From a virus, in IMG/VR virus record IMGVR_UViG_3300043540_000091, positions 62,001 to 126,000 of that record: DNA of 64,000 nucleotides; one strand, written 5' to 3'. Below are positions 36,413-53,280 of the stretch, in pieces. The position numbers and the translations under genes were made by a program. The notes below the pieces were generated by a model. That model was not told the origin of the DNA and ran no database searches. It was given only the letters and a program-made list of their open reading frames with translations. The first letter of the stretch is position 1, and each line of letters begins with the position of its first letter.

Positions 36413-36623
36413 GCAGGATCTCTCGACCAAGGTCTTGCGCGAGCGGGACTTCATAAACTCCCCGAAGCATGACAACTCCCTCAGGAAGTTCGTAGACGAG
36501 CATCCTGACGGCGCGAAGGACTCGGTCATCTGCAAGGCCCTCTGCATGACTCAGAAAGAACTTGAAGAAACGTATCAATGTGCTATCCTCAAGCTTAAAG
36601 AAGGCTTGAACACGGATGAATGA
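36405..36623 (+). CDS. Small protein with helix-turn-helix-like segment
   Basis: 72 residues. The part SVICKALCMTQKELEETYQCA resembles an HTH or sigma-region-4-like turn but is too short to assign. It overlaps the polymerase gene start by eight bases, so its translation is coupled to the polymerase. It could be a regulator or a polymerase partner. Confidence 0.52.
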   Translation: MNKQDLSTKVLRERDFINSPKHDNSLRKFVDEHPDGAKDSVICKALCMTQKELEETYQCAILKLKEGLNTDE

Positions 36624-39600
36624 TAGACGTTTCAAACAACTGATCAACCCGCACTCACACTCTGACCATAGCCTTGACGGTGCTGCGACTGTAAAGCAGA
36701 TCGTCAAACGCAATGCTGAGCTTGGTGCTACCCACGTAGCGTTGACCGAGCACGGCAGCATGAACAGTGCGATGGACCTGTACACCAAGGCCAAGGACGC
36801 CGGTCTCAAGCCAATCATCGGCATGGAAGCTTACATGGTCAACCCATTCCACGATGAGTACGTCGAGCTGTACCGCGCGGCGTTCAAGGCCGGTAAATGG
36901 AAGCCGCGCAACATCAAGGAAGACAACTACGAGGCCATAGAGCGAGCGATCCAACGTACGGCCATGAATCAATACCTGCACGTCACCATCCACTTCAAGG
37001 ATGCGTGGGCATATCGGTACTTCTGTGGCTTGTCCGAAGCGATGTATTCTCGCGCCGTCAAGAAGTATGACGAGCTGAAGCCCATGATCACTCTCGACGA
37101 GCTTCGAGGTGCTAGGGGCCATATCACGATAGGTTCCTCGTGTATGAAGGGACCTATCCAGAACTTCATGCTGCCGTCCCGTGACGGAATGATTCAGCCG
37201 AACCAAGCGCATGCCGAATGGATGTACCAGCAGCTCCGCGAGATTGCTGGACCGGACGGCTTCTTCGTCGAGGTATTCCCTCACACCGTCACGCATGATT
37301 GGCAGAAGGCTGAGAAGGATGATACCGGCACCATCGTGAAGCCTGGTTACTTCAAGCCTCATGAGTGTACCTGTCACGCTCCCGAAGGAGATCTCCAGAA
37401 GCCTCTCAACAAATACGCGATCGACCTTGCCAAGAAGTACGGCGACAAAATCATTATATCGCTTGACAGTCATTTCGCGACGGAGGACCAGAAGGTCATC
37501 CAGGACGCAAAGCTTGGCAATGGCGAAGAGAGCTGGCGCTTCCATAACTCGTACCACATCATGTCCACGGATGAGGCTGCAGCCATCCTGAAGGGTACCT
37601 TGGGAGTGTCCGACCGCGACATCGAGGAGTGGGTTGACAACTCGTACGCCTTCGCGTCGAACTTCAACGATTTCAAGCTGGAGACATCCAAGGACCGCTG
37701 GGTTCTGGCCGGTGACGGCGAACGATTCCTGGGACATCTAAAGTCCACGATAGACAAGTGGGGACGGATGGACTGGAACGACCAGGAGATGGTCGCTCAG
37801 CTCAAGCGTGAGATCCAGATATTGGCGTTCAACGGTAAGCTGAACCTACTCTCGTATGTCGAGACTATCGAGGATATCTCCAACTTCTGTCGAGAGAACG
37901 ACGTCCTCATGAACGTGCGGGGATCAGCTGGCGGATCACTGTTGATGTACGTCATCGGAGTGTCTGGTATCAACCCGCTACCACACAAGTTGTCCTTCGG
38001 ACGTTTTCTTACGGAAGGCCGCATCAAGGCGAACACCCTCCCAGACGTCGACATGGACGTCTCGGATCAGGAGAAGGTGATCGAGTATCTGAAGTCCAAG
38101 TACGGCAAGAACGTGTGCCGACTCTCAACGGATCTTCTTCTGCGGGTTAAATCGTCCATCAAGGATGCTGAACGGTCCATCTTTGGCCGCGTCCGCCCTG
38201 AAACCGAGCACTTATGCAGTAGGGCTATTCCATCCACTCCTCAAGGCAAGGACGATTACGAGTTCGTATTCGGCAAGGAAGGAACGACCGGCGAAGGTTT
38301 ATACAACACCAACATGCAGCTGCGCAGGTACGCCGACGAGAACCCTCAGGTCTGGTCGGTCGTGACGGAGATGCTGGGAATCCAGCGTAACAAGTCAACC
38401 CATGCGTGCGGATTCATCATCGCGGATCGTCCCATCACGGACTACATGCCGATCATCAAGGTGAACGACGAGTGGGTAACTGGCTTCAGTCCTAAGACGG
38501 CTGAGGCTGCTGGTCTGGTCAAGTTTGATCTTCTCGGGTTGAACACCCTTCGAGACATCAGGCTCGCGGTCAAGTCCATCAAGGAACGCACGGGGATGGT
38601 CATCGATCCATTCCATCTGCCCTTCTGCGCGAAGTCGGCCATGAACTTCCAGCTCGGTAAGACCGAAGGAGTCTTCCAGTTTGACACTCCAACGGTCAGA
38701 CCTCTTCAGACTCAGATCTTCAAGGCCGATCAGATGCGAACGGTCGTCGATATCTGCGAAGCAAACGCCGGTATCACGTCGCTCGGTCGTCCAGGTACAC
38801 TAGACGCGCCATCGGGAGATGGAAGAACTCTGGCCGAAGTGTACGTGGCCTGCGCGAACGGCGAACCTGTGAAGTATGTTCACCCTGATCTCGAACCGAT
38901 CCTCAAGAACACGTTCGGTATTCAGCTCTATCAGGAGCAGACGATCCAGATCTTCAAGGATATCGGAGGCATGGACGACACGGAAGCCGACGAGGTTCGT
39001 CGCGGTATCGGTAAGAAGATCGAGAAGGTTCTCATGGCGGCAACCGCCAAGCTTAAGGACGGCGCTCTCAAGCGCGGCTGGACGGAAGATCAAGTCAACT
39101 TGCTCATCGAACAGATTAAGGCTTCGGCTAACTATTCGTTCAACAAGTCGCACGCCGTGTCATATGCCTATGTCGCGTATGCATGCATGTGGCTCAAGAC
39201 GAACTATCCGCTCGACTGGTGGAAGGCGATCCTGTCTAACTCGACCAAGGACGAGATGGCCACGAAGTTCTGGCGGCACGTCAAAGATTTCACGACGCTT
39301 CCCGACATCAACATGTCAAAGGATGACTACGAGATCTCCGGTGACCGCATCATAGCTCCGTTTTCGATCCTTACTGGTGTGGGGGAGAAGTCTTACCAGG
39401 ACCTCATGAAGCATAAGCCGTATGAATCCCTGGAGTACTTCGTTCGATCTCACTTTCCTACCAAGGAAGAGGAGGACGAGAAGAAGCGCAAGGCCAAGAT
39501 GCGCAAGCAGGCCAAGGCGACTGGATCTAACATGCTGGAAGAAGATCGCGCCGATCGGAAGTCTGCGGTGAACGCAGGTATTGCTCGGAAGCTGATCGCA

Positions 39601-40293
39601 GCCGGTGTACTAGACTCCCTGTTCGAGCCTGGAATGATCATCGAAGAGAAGCTGATGAAGTTCGAGGAAGTTCGTGGCAGAGTTCGCGGCAAGAAGCCGG
39701 AGGTTGTCCCTGATGAGTTCGAGCGTATCTCAAATCTCGGTAAATACCTGCTGCGCAAGCAGCTGATCCAGATCTATTCAGAAGATCTGCGACCGATCAT
39801 GCTGCCGGTGCGAGGCTGTCGCGAGCTTCCGATCAGGTTCCAAGGTGCAAAGGGCTGGTTTACCCAGGACGGGTTCCCGATACTTGATGGAAACATGCTT
39901 GAATACTTCAAGACCAAGCATGAGGCTAAGATCGGGGTAGCGAACATCGTTCGGCAATTTGACATGCTTCTCGCTGATGGGGTTGACAACTGGCACCAAC
40001 CTGCTATAGTAGGAGACATCGAACGTCGCTTCTACGTGTTGGCATACGTCATCTCGGAGAAGTCGTTCCCGTACAAGAACAAGACCAAGTATGCGAATAG
40101 AATGGTCCTTGACGTGAACGGGGTCTTCACGGAAGAGATGCTCTGGCCAGGTAGGGACCAGTCAGAAGCGGAGATGGGATTCAAGGGAGCGCCGGTGCTG
40201 GCATCCTTCTACATCTCAACGCGCGGAGTGCAGCTTGGAAGCATTCACCCGCTGCTCGCCGAAGGGGATCTTGAGAAGTATGACATGGCTTAA
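36616..40293 (+). CDS. dnaE: C-family DNA polymerase (DnaE-like alpha subunit)
   Basis: 1225 residues, typical for the family. An N-terminal PHP domain starts INPHSHSDHSLDG (H13, H15, D17, H18) and continues with HVALTEHGSMN. The palm holds RGSAGGSLLMYVIGVSG (about 434) and LPDVDMDVSDQEKVIEYLK (about 475, catalytic Asp pair). Later elements include THACGFIIADRPI, GLVKFDLLGLNTL and FNKSHAVSYAYVAYACMWLK, matching fingers and tandem HhH-like regions. The C terminus carries a beta-like domain. It copies the phage genome with the DnaB-type helicase. The two-base gap to the upstream gene suggests coupling. Confidence 0.9.
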   Translation: MNDRRFKQLINPHSHSDHSLDGAATVKQIVKRNAELGATHVALTEHGSMNSAMDLYTKAKDAGLKPIIGMEAYMVNPFHDEYVELYRAAFKAGKWKPRNIKEDNYEAIERAIQRTAMNQYLHVTIHFKDAWAYRYFCGLSEAMYSRAVKKYDELKPMITLDELRGARGHITIGSSCMKGPIQNFMLPSRDGMIQPNQAHAEWMYQQLREIAGPDGFFVEVFPHTVTHDWQKAEKDDTGTIVKPGYFKPHECTCHAPEGDLQKPLNKYAIDLAKKYGDKIIISLDSHFATEDQKVIQDAKLGNGEESWRFHNSYHIMSTDEAAAILKGTLGVSDRDIEEWVDNSYAFASNFNDFKLETSKDRWVLAGDGERFLGHLKSTIDKWGRMDWNDQEMVAQLKREIQILAFNGKLNLLSYVETIEDISNFCRENDVLMNVRGSAGGSLLMYVIGVSGINPLPHKLSFGRFLTEGRIKANTLPDVDMDVSDQEKVIEYLKSKYGKNVCRLSTDLLLRVKSSIKDAERSIFGRVRPETEHLCSRAIPSTPQGKDDYEFVFGKEGTTGEGLYNTNMQLRRYADENPQVWSVVTEMLGIQRNKSTHACGFIIADRPITDYMPIIKVNDEWVTGFSPKTAEAAGLVKFDLLGLNTLRDIRLAVKSIKERTGMVIDPFHLPFCAKSAMNFQLGKTEGVFQFDTPTVRPLQTQIFKADQMRTVVDICEANAGITSLGRPGTLDAPSGDGRTLAEVYVACANGEPVKYVHPDLEPILKNTFGIQLYQEQTIQIFKDIGGMDDTEADEVRRGIGKKIEKVLMAATAKLKDGALKRGWTEDQVNLLIEQIKASANYSFNKSHAVSYAYVAYACMWLKTNYPLDWWKAILSNSTKDEMATKFWRHVKDFTTLPDINMSKDDYEISGDRIIAPFSILTGVGEKSYQDLMKHKPYESLEYFVRSHFPTKEEEDEKKRKAKMRKQAKATGSNMLEEDRADRKSAVNAGIARKLIAAGVLDSLFEPGMIIEEKLMKFEEVRGRVRGKKPEVVPDEFERISNLGKYLLRKQLIQIYSEDLRPIMLPVRGCRELPIRFQGAKGWFTQDGFPILDGNMLEYFKTKHEAKIGVANIVRQFDMLLADGVDNWHQPAIVGDIERRFYVLAYVISEKSFPYKNKTKYANRMVLDVNGVFTEEMLWPGRDQSEAEMGFKGAPVLASFYISTRGVQLGSIHPLLAEGDLEKYDMA

Positions 40294-42301: not shown

Positions 42302-42871
42302 ATGAACACGCCTGAGGCGAGTATGCTGGCGGTACCGAGAGGTACCCCAGGCAAAACTCCTCTCGAGCTGGACATGAGAACGATCTACGAAGCTGAACGT
42401 CGGCTTCCGGAAATCGCTCTCGTGTCTAATGCTACCAAGATGGAGCTTGCAGCTCTGTACAACAATGCGGCGAACGAGGTAGGTAAGTACCTCGGCTGGA
42501 TCGAGTACGAGCTTCTCAAGGCTAAGAAGGTTCACACGGCCAACCGATCAAACGTGATCATGGGCGTGGCTATCGAAGAGGCTAAGAGATTAAAAGAACT
42601 TGGAATCAAGATGAACGAGGATATCCGCGAGGCGCTCATCTCAAAGGATGAAGCATGCTCTCAGTCGCAGGACATCGTCGATTCCCTACTCTCGGTCAAG
42701 GTATGGCTGGAAGAGAAGAAGTGGTCGTTCATCAGGTCCTTCAATAGTATCAGCGAGCAGGCGCAGGGCAAGAGTGCTCAGCCTACTCCTAACTTCGTTG
42801 GAACCATTGGTCAAACCTATAACCTGCCTCAGGCCAACTTCATGGGCCGAGACGAAAGGAAGAAGGAATAA
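42302..42871 (+). CDS. Unknown protein between SSB and RecA-like genes
   Basis: 189 residues, helical (MELAALYNNAANEVGKYLGW, SQSQDIVDSLLSVKVWLEEK), with a disordered NFVGTIGQTYNLPQANFMGR tail. An AAAGGATAG site lies just before the ATG. The stop overlaps the recombinase ATG (TAATG). A recombination-mediator role (as UvsY in T4) is plausible from its place and size alone; no sequence signature of UvsY could be recognised. Confidence 0.55.
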   Translation: MNTPEASMLAVPRGTPGKTPLELDMRTIYEAERRLPEIALVSNATKMELAALYNNAANEVGKYLGWIEYELLKAKKVHTANRSNVIMGVAIEEAKRLKELGIKMNEDIREALISKDEACSQSQDIVDSLLSVKVWLEEKKWSFIRSFNSISEQAQGKSAQPTPNFVGTIGQTYNLPQANFMGRDERKKE

Positions 42872-43953
42872 TGGGCAAACACCTATCAAAACTTCGCGCT
42901 CTGGAAGGGGCTGTCAGTACCTCTACCGGCGACGAAGCAGTTCTAAACTGTCTGCGTACACCAAGTCCCTCGGTTAACTGGGCCATGGCTCAGCCTGGAT
43001 TCGGACTGCCGTATGGCTGCGGCATGGTTCTGTACGGACCTCCCAAGGGCGGTAAGTCGGTCTTCATCAACGGCATCATCGGTCAGATGCACAAGGACGA
43101 TCCTGACTTCATCGCGATCAAGTTCGACACTGAGCTTCGTTCTCAGTTCACCGTCACGCAGGCTGCCTTGAAGAAGTTTGGTATCGATCCAGACCGCTTC
43201 ATCGTGTACGACACCAACGTACCGAAGGACATCTTCGATCGCATCGAGCGCGATATAGCCGCCGCCTGCCAAGATGGCGAGAAGATCAAGCTCATCATCA
43301 TCGACTCCATGTCCGGAATCTCTGGTCGCCGGTCTCTGAACGCTGACTCTGTCGATACTCAACAGATCGGAGATCAGGCCGCTACTATCAAGGACGGTCT
43401 GCAACGTATCATGCCGACCATCCGTAAGTATGGCATCGCACTGATCTGCACCGCGCACATCCGCGCGGAGATGGACATGGCAGAGCAGATGCGTGGCAAG
43501 AAGGTCAAGATGAACGCTGCCTGGGCTGCCAAGCACACGTTCGAGTACTTCTGCTACATCGAGCCGAACCAGTCTAAGACCGGAAAGGTCACGCTGGCTG
43601 GCGAGACGTTCACCGATCCTGAACTGGTTGACTTCATGGACCGAGACATGAAGACCGGCCACAAGGTTCGCCTGCGCGTGGAGGACAGTTCGTTCCCGTA
43701 CGGAGGTCGCACCGCAGAGTTCACTCTGGACTTCGACAAAGGCATTGTGAATCAGTACGAGGAGATCTATACCCTTGCCAAGAACTATGGCCTGATCACG
43801 ACCAGCGGAGCTTGGTACCATGCAGAAGGCGAGAAGTTCAACGGTCTCATCAAGTGCCTTGAGGCTATCCGAGACAACCAAGAGCTTCAGACGTCGTTGC
43901 TGACCAAGGTCAAGCAGATCGACTTCAAGCGCATCAAGGGGATCGTAGACTGA
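42871..43953 (+). CDS. uvsX: RecA/UvsX-family recombinase
   Basis: 360 residues. Walker A VLYGPPKGGKSVF (about 54-65), Walker B region KIKLIIIDSMSGISGR, and the RecA-like helix IALICTAHIRAEMDMAEQM. The C-terminal part (DKGIVNQYEEIYTLAKNYGL, SGAWYHAEGEKFNGLIKCLE) matches the DNA-binding C-terminal domain of RecA/UvsX proteins. It catalyses strand exchange for replication restart and repair together with SSB. The next gene begins inside its stop codon by a CTGA overlap. Confidence 0.85.
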   Translation: MGKHLSKLRALEGAVSTSTGDEAVLNCLRTPSPSVNWAMAQPGFGLPYGCGMVLYGPPKGGKSVFINGIIGQMHKDDPDFIAIKFDTELRSQFTVTQAALKKFGIDPDRFIVYDTNVPKDIFDRIERDIAAACQDGEKIKLIIIDSMSGISGRRSLNADSVDTQQIGDQAATIKDGLQRIMPTIRKYGIALICTAHIRAEMDMAEQMRGKKVKMNAAWAAKHTFEYFCYIEPNQSKTGKVTLAGETFTDPELVDFMDRDMKTGHKVRLRVEDSSFPYGGRTAEFTLDFDKGIVNQYEEIYTLAKNYGLITTSGAWYHAEGEKFNGLIKCLEAIRDNQELQTSLLTKVKQIDFKRIKGIVD

Positions 43954-44924
43954 GAGAGCGGATCATAGAGCTTATCCAAGAGTCCGGACACGGGTTCGTT
44001 GAGAAGCGAAACACCATCCGGACTACCTGTCCTTTATGCGGCAGGGAGGATAAGTTCTCCATTCTTAAGCACAACGGCTCGTGCGTATGTTATCGAGGAT
44101 CTTGCGATTTTGGTCGCAGATGGTTCGACGACTGGGTATCGCTCACGTTCAACATCCCGCTGCGCGTGGCGCGAGAGAAGATCAAGAACGAGGCCATCGA
44201 TCCGGACAAGATCGCTCAGGAGAAGATCGACTTCACTCCGCGCGATATGGATGACGTGGAAGACTCGCTCGATGAGATTCAGTTCCCCGTGTTCCACATG
44301 ACTCCGATCACGTCGGAGCAGGCCAAACCTGGAGCAGCCTACCTGGAAGGTCGCGGCATCCCGCTCGAAGTGGCCGCGCGATATGATATCGCCTACTCTT
44401 CTCTTGAGCGCAGGGTTTACTTCCCTGTCAAGATGGGAGGTAGATACTACGGATATCAAGGACGAGCGATAGACAAGGTTGAAGAATCGATGCGCCTGCG
44501 CAGCAATGACGGATTCCGCAGGGACGTCCTTGTTATGTTTGCAGACAACCTGGAAGATTCGGACTTTGCAATCATAGCCGAAGGTCCGGTCGACGCGATC
44601 AAGTTCGACAAGGTCGGCGGGAACATATCGACCATGGGCAAGGTCGTTACCGACAAGCAGCTGGAAGCGATATACTCGTACGGCGTCAAAGAACTTTACC
44701 TGGCGCTCGACGACGACGCGGCTGCAGAGATGAACGAGATTGCGGCCAAGACTCACCTCAAGGTGTACCGCGTCCTCGTGCCGGACTCATGTCGAGCACG
44801 GTGCGAAGTGGCTGGTCGAAAGGCCGACTTCGGAGAATGCACCTTTGAAGAAGCTGAGCAGGCATTCAAGGAAGCAGTGCCTATGGACTCCAATACGATA
44901 CTGATGTATATACCCAAGGAGTAA
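43950..44924 (+). CDS. dnaG: DnaG-like DNA primase, CTG start
   Basis: 324 residues. The zinc-binding domain needs an upstream start: in frame from CTG 43950 it reads TTCPLCGREDKFSILKHNG and CVCYRGSCDFG (C27, C30, C47, C52). No ATG, GTG or TTG exists in that frame before GTG 44166, which would remove the zinc domain. CTG 43950 is preceded by AAGGGG eight bases away and overlaps the RecA stop (CTGA). TOPRIM motifs follow: FAIIAEGPVDAIKF (Glu about 211) and LYLALDDDAAAEM (about 252-262). It makes primers for lagging-strand synthesis with the DnaB-type helicase. Confidence 0.82.
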   Translation: MRERIIELIQESGHGFVEKRNTIRTTCPLCGREDKFSILKHNGSCVCYRGSCDFGRRWFDDWVSLTFNIPLRVAREKIKNEAIDPDKIAQEKIDFTPRDMDDVEDSLDEIQFPVFHMTPITSEQAKPGAAYLEGRGIPLEVAARYDIAYSSLERRVYFPVKMGGRYYGYQGRAIDKVEESMRLRSNDGFRRDVLVMFADNLEDSDFAIIAEGPVDAIKFDKVGGNISTMGKVVTDKQLEAIYSYGVKELYLALDDDAAAEMNEIAAKTHLKVYRVLVPDSCRARCEVAGRKADFGECTFEEAEQAFKEAVPMDSNTILMYIPKE

Positions 44925-44925
44925 G

Positions 44926-45633
44926 ATGAGCAAACGCAATAACGTCATCGAAAACTTTGAGGCATGCTACCTGCACGAGAACTGCGCACGTCGCGCGTTC
45001 GCGAACGAAGAAGCGATCAAGCGACTGACAAGCAGTCCTGACTTCGAGCGCTGCGTTAAGTACATCGCAAACATCTCATTCAACAGGAACAAGGTAGCCC
45101 TTCTCAGGCACGGATTCGATCACGAGGACATGATCAACGTAGCTCGCATTCTGGCCATGCAGTTCATCAACAACGAGTTCAAGGGAGAAACCAAGAAGGA
45201 CACGTACAACGTCCTGATGCGCTTCATCAGCCAGAAGATGGAGACATTCATGCTGTTCTTCAACCGTAAGTTCAGGATAAACGAGAGGTACTCCGACGTT
45301 GGAATTGATGATGTGACCGACATAGAAGCCTACATGGGTACTCCTGAGGTTAACGATCAGTGCGACGACGACAGCAAGGTCATGCACAAGATAGCCCTCC
45401 TTCGCGCAGAGGTCAACAAGTTCAAGACTCAGGTCATGAGACTCAGACTCAGCAGCGACATCGGCGCTCACGCGGATCGTCTCGCTGAGATCGCCACATC
45501 AAAGTCGGTGGAGTACGCCGTTCGACGCAAGGCTCGCAGGGTATGCAAGCAGAATGGCATTGACTATATTGGCTGGGCCAAGGTTCACATCAAAGAGCGT
45601 AACCTGAACGAGTCAGATCTTGCTCTTGAGTAA
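44926..45633 (+). CDS. Unknown helical protein, weakly sigma-region-2-like
   Basis: 235 residues behind AAGGAG. The segment SPDFERCVKYIANISFNRNK, LLRHGFDHEDMINVARILAM, MRFISQKMETFMLFFNRK has a spacing reminiscent of sigma region 2 (D.EDM, F...K). The likeness is weak, and a -35-binding region 4 is not seen. Its C terminus is basic and helical (YAVRRKARRVCKQNGIDYIG). It follows the primase by one base. A transcription or replication regulator is possible. Confidence 0.5.
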   Translation: MSKRNNVIENFEACYLHENCARRAFANEEAIKRLTSSPDFERCVKYIANISFNRNKVALLRHGFDHEDMINVARILAMQFINNEFKGETKKDTYNVLMRFISQKMETFMLFFNRKFRINERYSDVGIDDVTDIEAYMGTPEVNDQCDDDSKVMHKIALLRAEVNKFKTQVMRLRLSSDIGAHADRLAEIATSKSVEYAVRRKARRVCKQNGIDYIGWAKVHIKERNLNESDLALE

Positions 45634-45647
45634 ATCTGTGTTATTAT
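45620..45647 (+). promoter_or_regulatory. Promoter upstream of 45664
   Basis: TTGCTC (45620-45625), 16-base spacer ending in TGTGT, TATTAT (45642-45647), overlapping the end of the preceding gene. A leader with GAGGTGG precedes ATG 45664. Confidence 0.6.
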
Positions 45648-45663
45648 GTTATAGAGGTGGAAT

Positions 45664-46179
45664 ATGGACGTGAATCAGATAGCTAAGCAAGTTGGCGCAG
45701 TGGCAATCGCCCTTCTCATCGGAGCTGGCTTTGGAAGGTACAGCCTCCCCGCAAAGGTGGTAACCAAGACAGAAACGGTTACAGTCGAGAAGGAGGTAAT
45801 CAAGAATACTGAGAAGACCATCAAGGACACCAACAAGGATCGTGAACTGATCATCATCGAGACCATCAAGCCTGACGGCACGAAAGTCGTTGAGAAGCAT
45901 TACGTGAATCGAGATCAGATCAAGGAAGATACTACGAAGGTAAACGTCACGACCGATATCAAGAAGACCGACGAGAAGACGTCGACGGTAGTGTCGAACG
46001 GCAAGAACGACTGGAACCTATCCGCCCTTGTTACCACGAGCCACACGGAAGATGACATGTTGAAGGGTAATGTTAGCTACGGAGTTCACGTACAGCGCCG
46101 CATCCTAGGACCGATGAGTATCGGCGCCTTCGGACTCACCAACAAGACCTACGGTATCAGCCTTGGAGTCAGCTTCTGA
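45664..46179 (+). CDS. Membrane-anchored protein with beta-rich C terminus
   Basis: 171 residues. Residues about 8-26 are a single transmembrane or signal-anchor helix (KQVGAVAIALLIGAGFG). A long charged region follows (KTETVTVEKEVIKNTEKTIK), then a beta-rich end finishing in Phe (SIGAFGLTNKTYGISLGVSF). The terminal aromatic and alternating pattern resembles outer-membrane beta signals, but the anchor argues for a periplasmic protein. A spanin-like or envelope role could be considered; the evidence is only topological. Its stop overlaps the CTG start of the protease. Confidence 0.55.
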   Translation: MDVNQIAKQVGAVAIALLIGAGFGRYSLPAKVVTKTETVTVEKEVIKNTEKTIKDTNKDRELIIIETIKPDGTKVVEKHYVNRDQIKEDTTKVNVTTDIKKTDEKTSTVVSNGKNDWNLSALVTTSHTEDDMLKGNVSYGVHVQRRILGPMSIGAFGLTNKTYGISLGVSF

Positions 46180-47030
46180 GCCTTGTTAAACGAATCCTCT
46201 ACTTCAAGATCAAGCTTGCCTTGGTAGCCGCAACGGTTTCCCTGGCAGCTACTACGTGCGCGATCAGCGTGCCGCGCACCTACAAGGCGTACATGCGCCA
46301 TAAGGTCGGCAGCCGAGTCGTTGCAGTGACGGTGACGGAGTTCTCAAAGGACAGGGACAACACCGGCGGCGGAACCGGATTCTTAGTCAAAGCACCAAGC
46401 GGTAAGACCTTCATCGTCACCAATCGTCACGTCTGCGATGATTCCAAAGACGGATCGATGTGGGTAACGGTAGACGGGATGACGCAGGATCGTAAGCTGA
46501 AGATCCTCAAGAAGTCGGATCAGGCAGACCTGTGCCTCATGGAACCTATTCCTGGCATCGAAGGTCTCGACATCGGTGATACCCCAGCAGTTGGCGACGA
46601 CGTCATCTATATAGGACACCCTAGACTTCAGGCTAGGACTTATGTTTCAGGCGAGCTGGTCGGTACCAAGATCGAAACTGTGATTCGCGGACAGGTCGGG
46701 AAGGAGATCTCAGAGGCCGAATGCAAGGCGTCCAAGGACTCCTACATCGCTGATACTTATGAGATCTACCTCATCCTTCGCAGGCTCGCGCGGGATGTTA
46801 CGCCGACACAATCTATCGAGAGCCTCTTCAAGACTTCCAACAAGGTTACGGTGTGTTACGAACGTGGGCAGGCCTACGTGACCACTCTCGATGTTTACGG
46901 TGGTGCTTCCGGAAGTCCTATGGTAAACGTATATGGAGAAGTCGTTGGCGTGATCTATGCTGGCGAACAGGGCCAGTGGGGTTACGCCGTAATCTTGGCT
47001 GAACTCAAACAGTTACTGAAAGGAAGGTAA
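46176..47030 (+). CDS. Exported trypsin-like serine protease, CTG start
   Basis: 284 residues from CTG 46176, preceded by GGAG seven bases away and overlapping the upstream stop (CTGA). The N terminus is a signal or anchor: MSLVKRILYFKIKLALVAAT then VSLAATTCAIS. A TTG start at 46221 would remove its basic part and has no ribosome site. Catalytic motifs: FIVTNRHVC (His about 85), QADLCLMEP (Asp about 118), VYGGASGSPMVN (Ser about 245). This is the chymotrypsin-fold triad. It would act in the periplasm or outside the cell. Substrate unknown. Confidence 0.8.
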   Translation: MSLVKRILYFKIKLALVAATVSLAATTCAISVPRTYKAYMRHKVGSRVVAVTVTEFSKDRDNTGGGTGFLVKAPSGKTFIVTNRHVCDDSKDGSMWVTVDGMTQDRKLKILKKSDQADLCLMEPIPGIEGLDIGDTPAVGDDVIYIGHPRLQARTYVSGELVGTKIETVIRGQVGKEISEAECKASKDSYIADTYEIYLILRRLARDVTPTQSIESLFKTSNKVTVCYERGQAYVTTLDVYGGASGSPMVNVYGEVVGVIYAGEQGQWGYAVILAELKQLLKGR

Positions 47031-49156: not shown

Positions 49157-49376
49157 CTTCTGTCAAGCTCCCGACGAGATCGGCATATTCCGCGCCGACG
49201 ATCCAGTCCTGGATCGTGTGGATGTTACGTGGGGTACCGAGACATTTCGCAGATACTTCAAGGGCCGCGTCTTGGACGGAAACGAGAATGGCCGGAAGAT
49301 GCACGAATGGGTATTGAGCATAATGGAGGCTAGATGCAGATCTACGACATCGTCACGTATCCAGACGACAGACTAA
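49095..49376 (+). CDS. Small exported protein
   Basis: 93 residues from ATG 49095, with GGAG six bases upstream. A clear signal peptide (MLSRLLALWIAIAGSVAGA then ADFCQAPDE) predicts periplasmic location. The mature part is charged and has Cys residues. It overlaps the gene before by 62 bases and the deformylase start by 43. Function unknown; it may act with the endolysin or other envelope proteins. Confidence 0.6.
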   Translation: MLSRLLALWIAIAGSVAGAADFCQAPDEIGIFRADDPVLDRVDVTWGTETFRRYFKGRVLDGNENGRKMHEWVLSIMEARCRSTTSSRIQTTD

Positions 49377-49810
49377 ATACTCCGTGCGACAAGGTCACTC
49401 AGTTTGGAACGAATGAACTTCGCGAGATCGTTCAGCGCATGCACGCGACCATCAAGCACAAGAAGAGCCTTGGTTTCGGCCTTGCGGCGAACCAGGTTAG
49501 CATCATGCTTCAGATCATCGTCATCAATACGATGTCAAACAACAAGAAGGCTCAAGGGTACCTTGGCGCTCTCATAAATCCAGAGATCATAGAATACACC
49601 GGCGGTATCGAGATGGGTAACGAAGGATGTCTGTCATTTCCGAAGGACCGCTACGACGTTGCTCGGTCCACGAAGGTTAAGGTAAGGTTCCACGACATCG
49701 ATGGCAACGAGATCATTCGCAACTTCTCTGGTCTCAACGCCGTGGTCGTACAGCATGAAGTGGATCATATCAACGGTCTTACAATGGCCGACAGAGCGAA
49801 TGGACTTTAA
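49334..49810 (+). CDS. def: Peptide deformylase
   Basis: 158 residues with all three family motifs: GFGLAANQ (47-54), NEGCLSFP (96-103, metal Cys 99) and QHEVDHINGL (His 141, Glu 142, His 145). It removes the formyl group from new proteins. Length is normal. Downstream, after an HNH gene, lies methionine aminopeptidase, the next enzyme in the pathway. Its stop overlaps the HNH start (TAATG). Confidence 0.93.
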   Translation: MQIYDIVTYPDDRLNTPCDKVTQFGTNELREIVQRMHATIKHKKSLGFGLAANQVSIMLQIIVINTMSNNKKAQGYLGALINPEIIEYTGGIEMGNEGCLSFPKDRYDVARSTKVKVRFHDIDGNEIIRNFSGLNAVVVQHEVDHINGLTMADRANGL

Positions 49811-50319
49811 TGGGAACAGCGCTTGATCTAACAGGTAAGAAGTTCGGAAACTTTACGGCAATCGAGCGCTCTAATTCTAGAATCGTTTGCGGTGAAGTTC
49901 TATGGCTATTCCAGTGCGACTGCGGCAATAAAACTGAACATGTTGGGAATCGAGTTAAAAGAGGAGATATAGTTTCCTGTGGATGCTCGCGTCGCGGGAT
50001 TCATGAAGATACCGGCAGAAGGCTTCAAATGGAATCATATAAGCGTGGAGCTAAAGTCCGTGGATTTAAGTTCGATCTTACCGCCGATGAGTTCAATCGG
50101 ATTACATCTGGAAATTGCGAGTATTGTGATGCAGCTCCATCGATACGGACTAGACATGGATATTCTTGCTTGTTCAACGGTATAGACCGTAAAGATCATA
50201 CGCTCGGTTGTTCTATGAACAACTGCGTTCCGTGCTGCATCAAGTGCAATCGAATGAAAGGAACCCTTTCGACCCAAGAGTTCTTAACTCAAATTAAACT
50301 TATTTCGGAGAATCTGTGA
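49810..50319 (+). CDS. HNH homing endonuclease
   Basis: 169 residues. The N-terminal half has zinc-ribbon cysteines (CDCGNKTEHVGNR, VSCGCSRRG). The C-terminal half has the HNH family segment FNGIDRKDHTLGCSMNNC, VPCCIKCNRMKG. The DNA is clearly more A+T-rich than its neighbours. It sits exactly between deformylase and aminopeptidase, with start and stop overlaps, so it looks like an invading mobile gene. Its end contains GGAG for the next gene. Confidence 0.82.
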   Translation: MGTALDLTGKKFGNFTAIERSNSRIVCGEVLWLFQCDCGNKTEHVGNRVKRGDIVSCGCSRRGIHEDTGRRLQMESYKRGAKVRGFKFDLTADEFNRITSGNCEYCDAAPSIRTRHGYSCLFNGIDRKDHTLGCSMNNCVPCCIKCNRMKGTLSTQEFLTQIKLISENL

Positions 50320-51125
50320 AGGACCACGCACTGATCCAAGGCATGCGCAAGGCAGGTAAGCTCGCAGCACTCGTGCTCGAACAGGTCTGCGCTGCGGCCA
50401 AGGAGGGCGTCACGACGAACGAACTCGACAAGCTGGCGCACGACATCACCATCGCCAATGGCGGCACGAACGCTTGCCTCGGCTACAAGGGTTATCCGAA
50501 GTCGATCTGCACATCCGTGAACGAGATGCTCTGCCATGGCGTTCCTAACGATGAGCCTCTCAAGAACGGCGACATCGTCAACATCGACGTGACCGTCAAG
50601 GTCGGTCCGTACCACGGCGACACTTCTCGAACCGTGGCCATAGGAGAGGTCTCTACCGACGCGTACGCTTTGATCTGCGCCGCGCGCGAGGCGATGATGG
50701 CCGGTATCGCGGCGGTAAGGCCGAACGGTTTCACCGGCGACATCGGCAACGCCATCTCTACGTTCATCAAGGGTAACTATCCCCAGTTCACGGTATGTCG
50801 CGACATCGGCGGCCACGGTATCGGACGAGTCTTCCACGACAAGCCGTTCATACCTGGATTCGGAGACCCTCGCACGGGTGAGAAGCTGAAGCTGTGGTCG
50901 TGCATCACGGTAGAGCCGATAGTCCTATGGAACGTGCCGAAGTACGGTTCTCGTCCGATCGCTCCGCACAAGGATCATAAGGAATGTAAGGTCCAGGAGA
51001 TCGTTGGGACCGGCGGCCTTGCGGCACAGTTCGAGCATACGGTACTCATAACGGTGGACGGTCCGGAGATCCTGACGGAGATACCAATCTTACCCATAAG
51101 GCAGGGATTGCTTGAGCGTTACTAG
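50316..51125 (+). CDS. map: Methionine aminopeptidase, type I
   Basis: 269 residues from GTG 50316. The five metal ligands are in place: NIDVTV (D91), GDTSRT (D102), GGHGIGR (H167), ITVEP (E200), AQFEHTV (E240), with CHGVP (H74) for substrate. It removes the initiator Met after the deformylase has acted. Very close to the bacterial size. Both enzymes are known in few phages as a pair. It ends in an overlap with a TTG-start gene. Confidence 0.93.
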   Translation: MKDHALIQGMRKAGKLAALVLEQVCAAAKEGVTTNELDKLAHDITIANGGTNACLGYKGYPKSICTSVNEMLCHGVPNDEPLKNGDIVNIDVTVKVGPYHGDTSRTVAIGEVSTDAYALICAAREAMMAGIAAVRPNGFTGDIGNAISTFIKGNYPQFTVCRDIGGHGIGRVFHDKPFIPGFGDPRTGEKLKLWSCITVEPIVLWNVPKYGSRPIAPHKDHKECKVQEIVGTGGLAAQFEHTVLITVDGPEILTEIPILPIRQGLLERY

Positions 51126-52153: not shown

Positions 52154-52406
52154 GCTGCTTCTGCATGATGACCTTTATCACGATCGCGGTCGCAGATCCG
52201 TACTTCTCGATCTCTTTCGGCACGTACTTCTTCTCGAGATCCCTCAGGCGCTTGTCGACCTCAGGCTTCAGCCCTGACTGGATGTAAGCTCCGTCGAGAG
52301 ATGTTCGCGCGGCATCCATGTACCTGTCGTGGGACTTCTGGTCGTTGGACGTAGCTCCGTTGATGGCAAGCCCGAACGCCAGAAAGAATCCTGCTACTTG
52401 GCCCAT
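52131..52406 (-). CDS. Small membrane-anchored or exported protein downstream of subtilase
   Basis: 91 residues. N terminus MGQVAGFFLAFGLAINGATS is a signal or membrane anchor; the rest is charged and helical. The ATG is inside the end of the subtilase gene (13-base overlap), so the two are co-translated. It may be a partner or chaperone of the protease, or a lysis factor. Confidence 0.5.
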   Translation of the reverse strand: MGQVAGFFLAFGLAINGATSNDQKSHDRYMDAARTSLDGAYIQSGLKPEVDKRLRDLEKKYVPKEIEKYGSATAIVIKVIMQKQLTLTWSF

Positions 52407-53215
52407 CCGCCAGCCTTCTTGACGAGTAACCTTCCGTAGTGGCTCTTCCTCATGATGTACAGGTGGTTGGCGAGCTTCCCAGTCATGGTCGCGGCGGCCT
52501 GTGAAGTTCCAGTCATATATCCGTAGAGTCCGCCAGGAAGAGTTGACAGGACGTCGTTACCGATCTCCTTGTACAGAAGGACCTTGGACTCATCGCTGCT
52601 GGTGTTCGACGATGGAAGCGTCTTCTCTCCATCGGCGTACGTCGCGGTCACTGCCACGATTCGAGAGTCGCACATGGCAGGCCAGTACTTGTGAGTGATG
52701 ACGTCGGACCTTTCGTTGCCAGCTGCCGCGACCACTATGATACCCTTGTCAAGAGCTTCCTTGAGAACCGCGCACTCCTCGTCGCTTCTGGCGATACCGC
52801 CGCCGGAGTAGTTGATGATGTCGACGTTCAGCTCGACGGCCTTCTTGAATGACTTGATCGTGTTCTTGAGGTTGTCCGCGTCGAGGCCCTTCGAGTTGTA
52901 GTACTTCATGATATACAGGCACGTCGGAGCCGTTCCAGCGAATTTCGTGACTATTCCGGCGATGTGAGTCCCGTGACCATGCTCGTCGCTCACGTCTAGG
53001 TTGTCGACTTCCTTACCGTCGACGACCTTCTTGGTTACGAAGTTCCAAGATCCGCATACCTTCGGTGTAAGCTTAAGCTGCTCCCAATTTGACTTCATGT
53101 CAATGCCGGTGTCAACGATTGCGATCTTGACCATATCTGGATCTTCGACCGGTTTCGGTTCGTCCGCTGCGAACGCGTGAGCGCCTATGAGCAGTGAAAG
53201 GATGATCTTCTTCAT
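52394..53215 (-). CDS. Exported subtilisin-like serine protease (S8)
   Basis: 273 residues from ATG 53215; longer in-frame extensions lack a signal peptide. MKKIILSLLIGAHAFA is a signal peptide. Catalytic residues: KIAIVDTGID (D35), EHGHGTHIAG (H81), AAAGNE (N167), MTGTSQAAA (S238). No prodomain is seen. Four cysteines (54, 99, 148, 182) could make disulfides. It would act outside the cytoplasm. Phage-encoded subtilases are rare. The start is six bases after a GACAAT box that has a TTGACT box 17 bases further up, so it is probably leaderless. Confidence 0.85.
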   Translation of the reverse strand: MKKIILSLLIGAHAFAADEPKPVEDPDMVKIAIVDTGIDMKSNWEQLKLTPKVCGSWNFVTKKVVDGKEVDNLDVSDEHGHGTHIAGIVTKFAGTAPTCLYIMKYYNSKGLDADNLKNTIKSFKKAVELNVDIINYSGGGIARSDEECAVLKEALDKGIIVVAAAGNERSDVITHKYWPAMCDSRIVAVTATYADGEKTLPSSNTSSDESKVLLYKEIGNDVLSTLPGGLYGYMTGTSQAAATMTGKLANHLYIMRKSHYGRLLVKKAGGWAK

Positions 53216-53221
53216 GTATAT

Positions 53222-53250
53222 ATTGTCCACCATAAACAGAATGAAGTCAA
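53222..53250 (-). promoter_or_regulatory. Leftward promoter of the subtilase
   Basis: Read leftward: TTGACT (53250-53245), 17-base spacer, GACAAT (53227-53222), then six bases to ATG 53215. The -35 box shares the palindrome GTCAACTTGAC (53246-53256) with the rightward promoter. Confidence 0.5.
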
Positions 53251-53251
53251 C

Positions 53252-53280
53252 TTGACACTCGACCAAGGTAGTGCTAAGAT
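53252..53280 (+). promoter_or_regulatory. Rightward promoter, strong -35
   Basis: TTGACA (53252-53257), 17-base spacer, TAAGAT (53275-53280), then a leader with GGAGG and ATG 53298. The -35 is a perfect consensus hexamer. It and the leftward promoter overlap at a palindrome, so one regulator could control both. Confidence 0.65.

What the first reader, a model, noticed from the sequence alone, without database searches (positions are those of the whole stretch)
43950..46179. Two genes with CTG start codons in CTGA overlaps
The primase zinc domain is encoded only if translation starts upstream of GTG 44166, and no ATG, GTG or TTG exists in that frame. CTG 43950 has AAGGGG eight bases upstream. 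The exported protease shows the same: CTG 46176 has GGAG seven bases upstream, and a full signal peptide follows it. In both, CTG overlaps the upstream gene's TGA, as ATGA and GTGA do elsewhere here. Standard gene calls truncate both proteins, losing the zinc finger and the signal peptide.
Basis: partly seen in the sequence, partly recalled or inferred. Interest (0 to 1): 0.75.

Follow-up and report, generated by a model that had tools for sequence, protein, structure and literature searches.

The report
Two phage genes starting at CTG
In this uncultured phage two neighbouring genes, a DNA primase and a membrane-linked protease, almost certainly begin at the rare start codon CTG, which overlaps the stop codon of the gene before; such starts are known but rare, and standard gene finders would cut off the front of both proteins.

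Summary
CTG 43950 and CTG 46176 each share a 4-base overlap (CTGA) with the stop of the upstream gene and have Shine-Dalgarno-like sequence at normal spacing. The next in-frame ATG/GTG/TTG (GTG 44166, TTG 46221) have none. These are the only two co-directional junctions in the window without a canonical start near the upstream stop. Primase: all 21 relatives examined keep the N-terminal zinc domain and start with ATG (one GTG) at the same place within a few residues; the region is under purifying selection and folds confidently as the primase zinc domain. CTG itself is seen only in this contig. Protease: CTGA occurs at the identical place in two other phages, with TTGA and GTGA in two more distant ones; in one of them (L082) no other start gives a membrane segment. 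'Losing the signal peptide' is overstated for the window: TTG 46221 keeps most of the hydrophobic stretch but loses the basic N-region. SD plus CTGA alone is common by chance, so the case rests on homology. CTG starts are documented elsewhere (0.7% of Caulobacter genes). This is a well-supported new example of a known rarity, not a new mechanism. No expression data exist.

The parts
42871..43953 (+). RecA/UvsX-like recombinase gene; its TGA (43951-43953) overlaps the primase CTG
   Evidence: PHROG 97 UvsX-like E 1.5e-36, Pfam RecA E 3e-8
43936..43941 (+). Shine-Dalgarno-like AAGGGG, 8 nt before CTG 43950
   Evidence: sequence; duplex energy -6.2 kcal/mol, median of putative ATG starts -6.2
43950..43952 (+). 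inferred CTG start codon of the primase, in CTGA
   Evidence: only start-like codon where homologous N-termini begin
43950..44924 (+). DNA primase, DnaG-like, 324 aa from the CTG
   Evidence: PHROG 47 DNA primase E 1.1e-36; Foldseek best hit 2au3 E 3e-12
44028..44105 (+). zinc-binding motif CPxC...C...C (C27, C30, C47, C52 counted from CTG)
   Evidence: C27, C30, C47 invariant in 22 homologs; pLDDT 91-96 over residues 1-70
44166..44168 (+). GTG, first canonical start in the primase frame; judged not the start
   Evidence: no SD (+0.7 kcal/mol); would remove residues 1-72; not a conserved Met position in homologs
45664..46179 (+). small membrane-anchored gene of unknown (spanin-like?) function ending ...VSF-TGA; stop overlaps the protease CTG
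   Evidence: C-terminal SF* conserved in nearest relatives, aromatic F/W in the others
46165..46168 (+). GGAG, 7 nt before CTG 46176
   Evidence: sequence; GGAG also present in L082, L085, L001, L002, L077
46176..46178 (+). inferred CTG start codon of the protease, in CTGA
   Evidence: same CTGA at L082:9282 and L085:9263
46176..47030 (+). trypsin-like serine protease with N-terminal membrane segment, 284 aa from the CTG
   Evidence: Pfam Trypsin_2 E 4.7e-15; H85, D118, S245 invariant in relatives
46215..46265 (+). most hydrophobic 17-residue segment (residues 14-30) preceded by a basic N-region (net +4)
   Evidence: hydropathy scan
46221..46223 (+). TTG, first canonical start in the protease frame; judged not the start
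   Evidence: no SD (+0.3 kcal/mol); would lose the basic N-region

Best explanation
Both genes are read from the CTG that overlaps the stop codon of the gene before. The ribosome that has just finished the upstream protein, or a fresh 30S subunit brought by the internal Shine-Dalgarno sequence once the upstream ribosome has opened the message, places initiator fMet-tRNA on CUG and restarts one base back from the stop. Shown here: the sequence layout, position-homologous starts in relatives, conservation of CTGA for the protease in three phages, SD sequence, and selection on the primase N-terminus. Inferred: that CUG is really used, that fMet is the first residue, and that coupling to the upstream gene compensates for the weakness of CUG. 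The likely origin differs. In the primase about 18-20 bases that in L082/L085 hold the end of recA and the primase ATG-AGC are missing, so Leu codon 3 became the start and the TGA inside CTG-AGA became the recA stop. In the protease the start is tied to the conserved C-terminal Phe of the upstream gene: TTY-TGA can only give TTG or CTG, and this genome uses TTC for 89% of Phe.
For: Homologs: primase N-terminus and zinc cysteines in all 22 sequences, 21 relatives starting ATG/GTG at the same place. N/S ratio of the first 72 codons 0.28-0.29 against 0.23-0.27 in the body. Zinc domain predicted at pLDDT above 90 and matched to DnaG zinc + polymerase domains 2au3. Protease: CTGA at the same place in L082 and L085, TTGA in L002, GTGA in L077, TAATG in L001; L082's only canonical alternative removes the membrane segment (hydropathy 0.26 against 2.26). 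SD energies favour CTG over all alternatives, ATC/ATA included. Census: only these two junctions lack a canonical start. Phe TTC 473: TTT 57.
Against: No expression or proteomic data. CUG initiates at about 0.9% of AUG and makes up 0.024% of annotated bacterial starts (PMC11497404). The primase CTG is seen in one metagenomic contig; a single wrong base (A read as C) would hide an ATGA. SD + CTGA pattern is near chance level. In E. coli reinitiation is not the main mode of coupling (PMC7538156), so the coupling step is open.
Confidence: 0.8

Rival explanations
1. The genes start at the first canonical codons (GTG 44166, TTG 46221); the upstream parts are untranslated relics.
For: Standard start-codon rules; TTG 46221 keeps most of the hydrophobic stretch.
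Against: No SD at either; upstream parts conserved in every relative and under purifying selection as strong as the body; L082's canonical alternative has no membrane segment.
Confidence: 0.07
2. The start is another near-cognate codon just downstream (ATC 43962 or ATA 43965 in the primase, ATC 46194 in the protease).
For: ATT/ATA starts are known in bacteria (AUU and AUA in PMC13009471).
Against: SD pairing there is at background (-2.9, -3.0, -1.9 kcal/mol); CTG, not these codons, is what is shared by the three protease loci.
Confidence: 0.05
3. Primase only: sequencing or assembly error; the true base at 43950 is A and the start is an ordinary ATGA.
For: Single contig; relatives use ATG; the changed recA end (GAA-TGA) would be plausible.
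Against: The second, independent CTGA in the same region is confirmed by two other contigs, so the genome tolerates such starts; errors of this kind are rare in assembled contigs (general knowledge). Reads were not available.
Confidence: 0.08
4. Ribosomes slip -1 (or read on) at the end of the upstream gene and make fusion proteins, so no start is needed.
For: The downstream frame is -1 and overlaps the stop in both cases.
Against: No slippery run: Phe TTC to CTT and Asp GAC to AGA would lose pairing; relatives have separate genes with their own ATG.
Confidence: 0.02

Closest known systems
CTG (CUG) start codons found by ribosome profiling and LC-MS in Caulobacter crescentus (0.7% of mapped starts, PMC4117421)
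   Same: CTG used as an ordinary gene start in bacteria
   Different: there measured directly; here inferred in a phage from comparison, and tied to stop overlaps
CTG start annotated in Bacteroides phage phiB124-14 ORF10 (PMC3338817); phage annotation guide lists CTG among alternative starts (PMC8785237)
   Same: phage genes assigned CTG starts
   Different: no conservation across relatives was shown in the passages read; here the protease CTG is shared by three phages
Stop-start overlaps ATGA / TGATG with termination-reinitiation (PMC6728339, PMC10666635)
   Same: 4-base overlap with SD inside the upstream gene
   Different: first base is C, not A or G; coupling at CTGA was not found described in the passages read
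DnaG-type primase with N-terminal zinc domain (Aquifex DnaG 2au3; Myxococcus phage Mx1 primase)
   Same: zinc domain + TOPRIM order, fold match E 3e-12
   Different: phage form is short (324 aa), below the NCBIfam dnaG cut-off

Membership tests
CTG-initiated genes | no canonical start codon at the homologous start position | tested here: met
CTG-initiated genes | homologs start at the same place | tested here: met
CTG-initiated genes | CTG conserved in relatives | tested here: inconclusive
   protease: met in L082 and L085; primase: relatives use ATG/GTG, CTG only in the window
CTG-initiated genes | initiation observed at CTG (footprint, N-terminal peptide) | not testable with these tools
   needs infected cells; host unknown
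Termination-reinitiation gene pairs (-4 overlap) | NTGA overlap with SD inside the upstream gene | tested here: met
Termination-reinitiation gene pairs (-4 overlap) | downstream translation depends on upstream translation | not testable with these tools
   needs reporter constructs
DnaG-type primase | N-terminal zinc motif CPxC...C | tested here: met
   invariant C27, C30, C47 when read from CTG; absent when read from GTG 44166
DnaG-type primase | TOPRIM catalytic domain | tested here: met
   Pfam Toprim_2 E 8.5e-5 over cut-off; EGP..DxD conserved
DnaG equivalog TIGR01391 | score over curated cut-off 283.6 bits | tested here: not met
   36.3 bits: a phage relative, not DnaG proper
Trypsin-like serine protease (PF13365) | family score over cut-off and His/Asp/Ser triad | tested here: met
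   57 bits against 27.6; H85, D118, S245 invariant

The most novel reading that the evidence does not exclude
The overlapping-stop context itself makes CUG an efficient start: a ribosome that has terminated at UGA restarts on the shared CUG without the usual first-base check, so phages can keep essential genes behind CTGA, and an unnoticed class of CTGA-started genes is truncated in public phage annotation.
Probability: 0.25. Interest if true: 0.55.

Novelty: new member of a known kind. Interest (0 to 1): 0.35.

Why it matters
An enzyme expected to be essential (the primase) appears to depend on a start codon that works at about 1% of AUG in E. coli reporters. That makes it directly testable whether stop-start overlap relaxes start-codon choice. 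Practically, gene finders limited to ATG/GTG/TTG remove the primase zinc domain here and the membrane segment of the L082 protease.

Tried and rejected
SD + CTGA pattern scans of the whole record: close to control counts, so not usable as evidence. Initiation factor IF3 in the phage: none found; tRNA genes in the window, in case of an odd initiator: none. DNA-level search of phage records and protein search for the protease in phage records: nothing. A last viral-contig scan for close relatives of the primase junction was wasted: my pattern contained an error and did not match the window itself. GTDB genome scan for the primase found no relative, so the host is unknown. Survey of 713 junctions in the window and relatives: CTGA is over-represented among junctions without canonical start (4 of 39 against 12 of 674, p 0.009; 0.03 after removing one homologous case), but two of the four (L093) look like ordinary intergenic gaps, so this is weak support. 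A duplicate short primase made from GTG 44166, as in T7 gene 4, was considered: no SD there and no conserved internal start, so not favoured. Search for more CTG starts in 33 kb outside the window: none.

Full report
What was checked. The window is part of a 138,678-base virus record. A codon-usage gene model trained on the window flags exactly two of 67 coding frames as having clear coding signal (gain above 4) upstream of their first ATG/GTG/TTG, and they are these two. Of about 50 co-directional junctions all others have a canonical start between -60 and +33 of the upstream stop. In 33 kb of the same record outside the window (51 modelled genes) no further candidate appeared, so CTG use is 2 in about 118 modelled genes.

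Primase. Read from CTG the protein is 324 aa and matches PHROG 47 DNA primase from residue 5 (E 1.1e-36); read from GTG 44166 the match weakens (6.5e-28) and the zinc part is gone. In 21 relatives, 20 from environmental virus contigs plus Myxococcus phage Mx1, the start is ATG (one GTG) at the same place within a few residues, and CPxC...C is invariant. The nearest, L082 and L085 (58% identical), read MSLRDR..., where Leu3 aligns with the CTG. Synonymous sites are near saturation, but the N/S ratio of codons 1-72 (0.28-0.29) is close to that of the body (0.23-0.27). The structure model gives residues 1-70 pLDDT above 90, followed by a disordered linker at 82-104; the best PDB match is Aquifex primase zinc + polymerase domains, and the profile search aligns the zinc part with the same entry. 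GTG 44166 lies at codon 73, inside the last helix before the linker.

Protease. A trypsin-like protease (Pfam Trypsin_2 E 4.7e-15) with His85, Asp118 and Ser245 invariant in relatives. The upstream gene ends ...SF-TGA. In L082 and L085, whose proteases are only 37-38% identical to this one, the same TTC-TGA gives the same CTGA, again with GGAG before it; L002 has TTT-TGA and so TTGA; L077 has GTGA; L001 has TTC-TAATG. In L082 the only canonical codon is an ATG inside the hydrophobic segment, which leaves no membrane segment (17-residue hydropathy 0.26 against 2.26 from CTG). In the window TTG 46221 keeps the hydrophobic part but not the four net positive charges before it. Whether the segment is cleaved or an anchor is untested.

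Start signals. Pairing with the anti-SD is -6.2 and -5.9 kcal/mol at the two CTGs, as at ordinary ATG starts here (median -6.2), and about zero at GTG 44166, TTG 46221 and the L082/L085 alternatives. On the other hand GGAG or AAGG before CTGA occurs throughout the record at nearly control frequency, so SD plus overlap proves nothing by itself; the homology does.

How it arose (inference). In L082 and L085 the recA end and the primase start are separate (GAC-ACA-GCG-GAG-TGA-C-ATG-AGC-CTT and GAC-TCG-GAG-TAA-GA-ATG-AGC-CTT). The window has GA-CTG at this point, about 20 or 18 bases fewer. A deletion would have removed the old stop and the ATG, leaving Leu codon 3 as the only start-like codon, with its TGA as the new recA stop. 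For the protease the first base of the start is the last base of a conserved Phe codon, so only TTG or CTG is possible without changing the upstream protein; this genome uses TTC for 89% of Phe.

Known background. CUG is 0.024% of annotated bacterial starts and works at 0.86% of AUG (PMC11497404), but profiling plus proteomics found CTG at 0.7% of starts in Caulobacter (PMC4117421), and phage annotation guides list it (PMC8785237). One phage ORF with CTG is reported in phiB124-14 (PMC3338817). Overlaps ATGA/TGATG couple translation (PMC6728339), though how is disputed (PMC7538156). The finding is therefore a well-supported new example of a documented rarity. The unusual points are the conserved CTGA across three diverged phages and a replication enzyme behind such a start.

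Not settled. No expression evidence; host unknown; the primase CTG rests on one contig without reads; coupling is inferred.

Noticed in passing
window 49334-49810 and 50316-51125: Peptide deformylase (Pfam E 3e-45) and methionine aminopeptidase family M24 (E 1e-44) lie together; both are also in relative L001 (14146-14649, 14656-15432). A phage carrying both N-terminal processing enzymes is notable next to odd start codons.
   Followed up: partly
window 49810-50319: HNH-endonuclease-like ORF (by eye: CEYC...CIKCNRMKG) sits between deformylase and aminopeptidase, absent from that place in L001; looks like an inserted homing endonuclease.
   Followed up: no
L001 60-4502: DNA polymerase III alpha homolog is interrupted by what looks like an intein (C...VTHNC) with a zinc/HNH-type ORF inside; the window copy (36616-40293) is uninterrupted.
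   Followed up: no
L012:6885, L022:8931, L030:9958 and 10230, L035:5697, L093:11459: CTGATG junctions, where CTG (-4) is directly followed by ATG (-1), recur in relatives and may be stepping stones to CTG-only starts.
   Followed up: partly
L090:7993: Primase relative whose homology begins at a TTG, another weak start for the same gene.
   Followed up: no
window 52394-53266 (-): Subtilase-family protease (Pfam S8 E 1e-23); subtilase-like ORFs also occur near the primase in L001, L002 and L003 (by eye).
   Followed up: no
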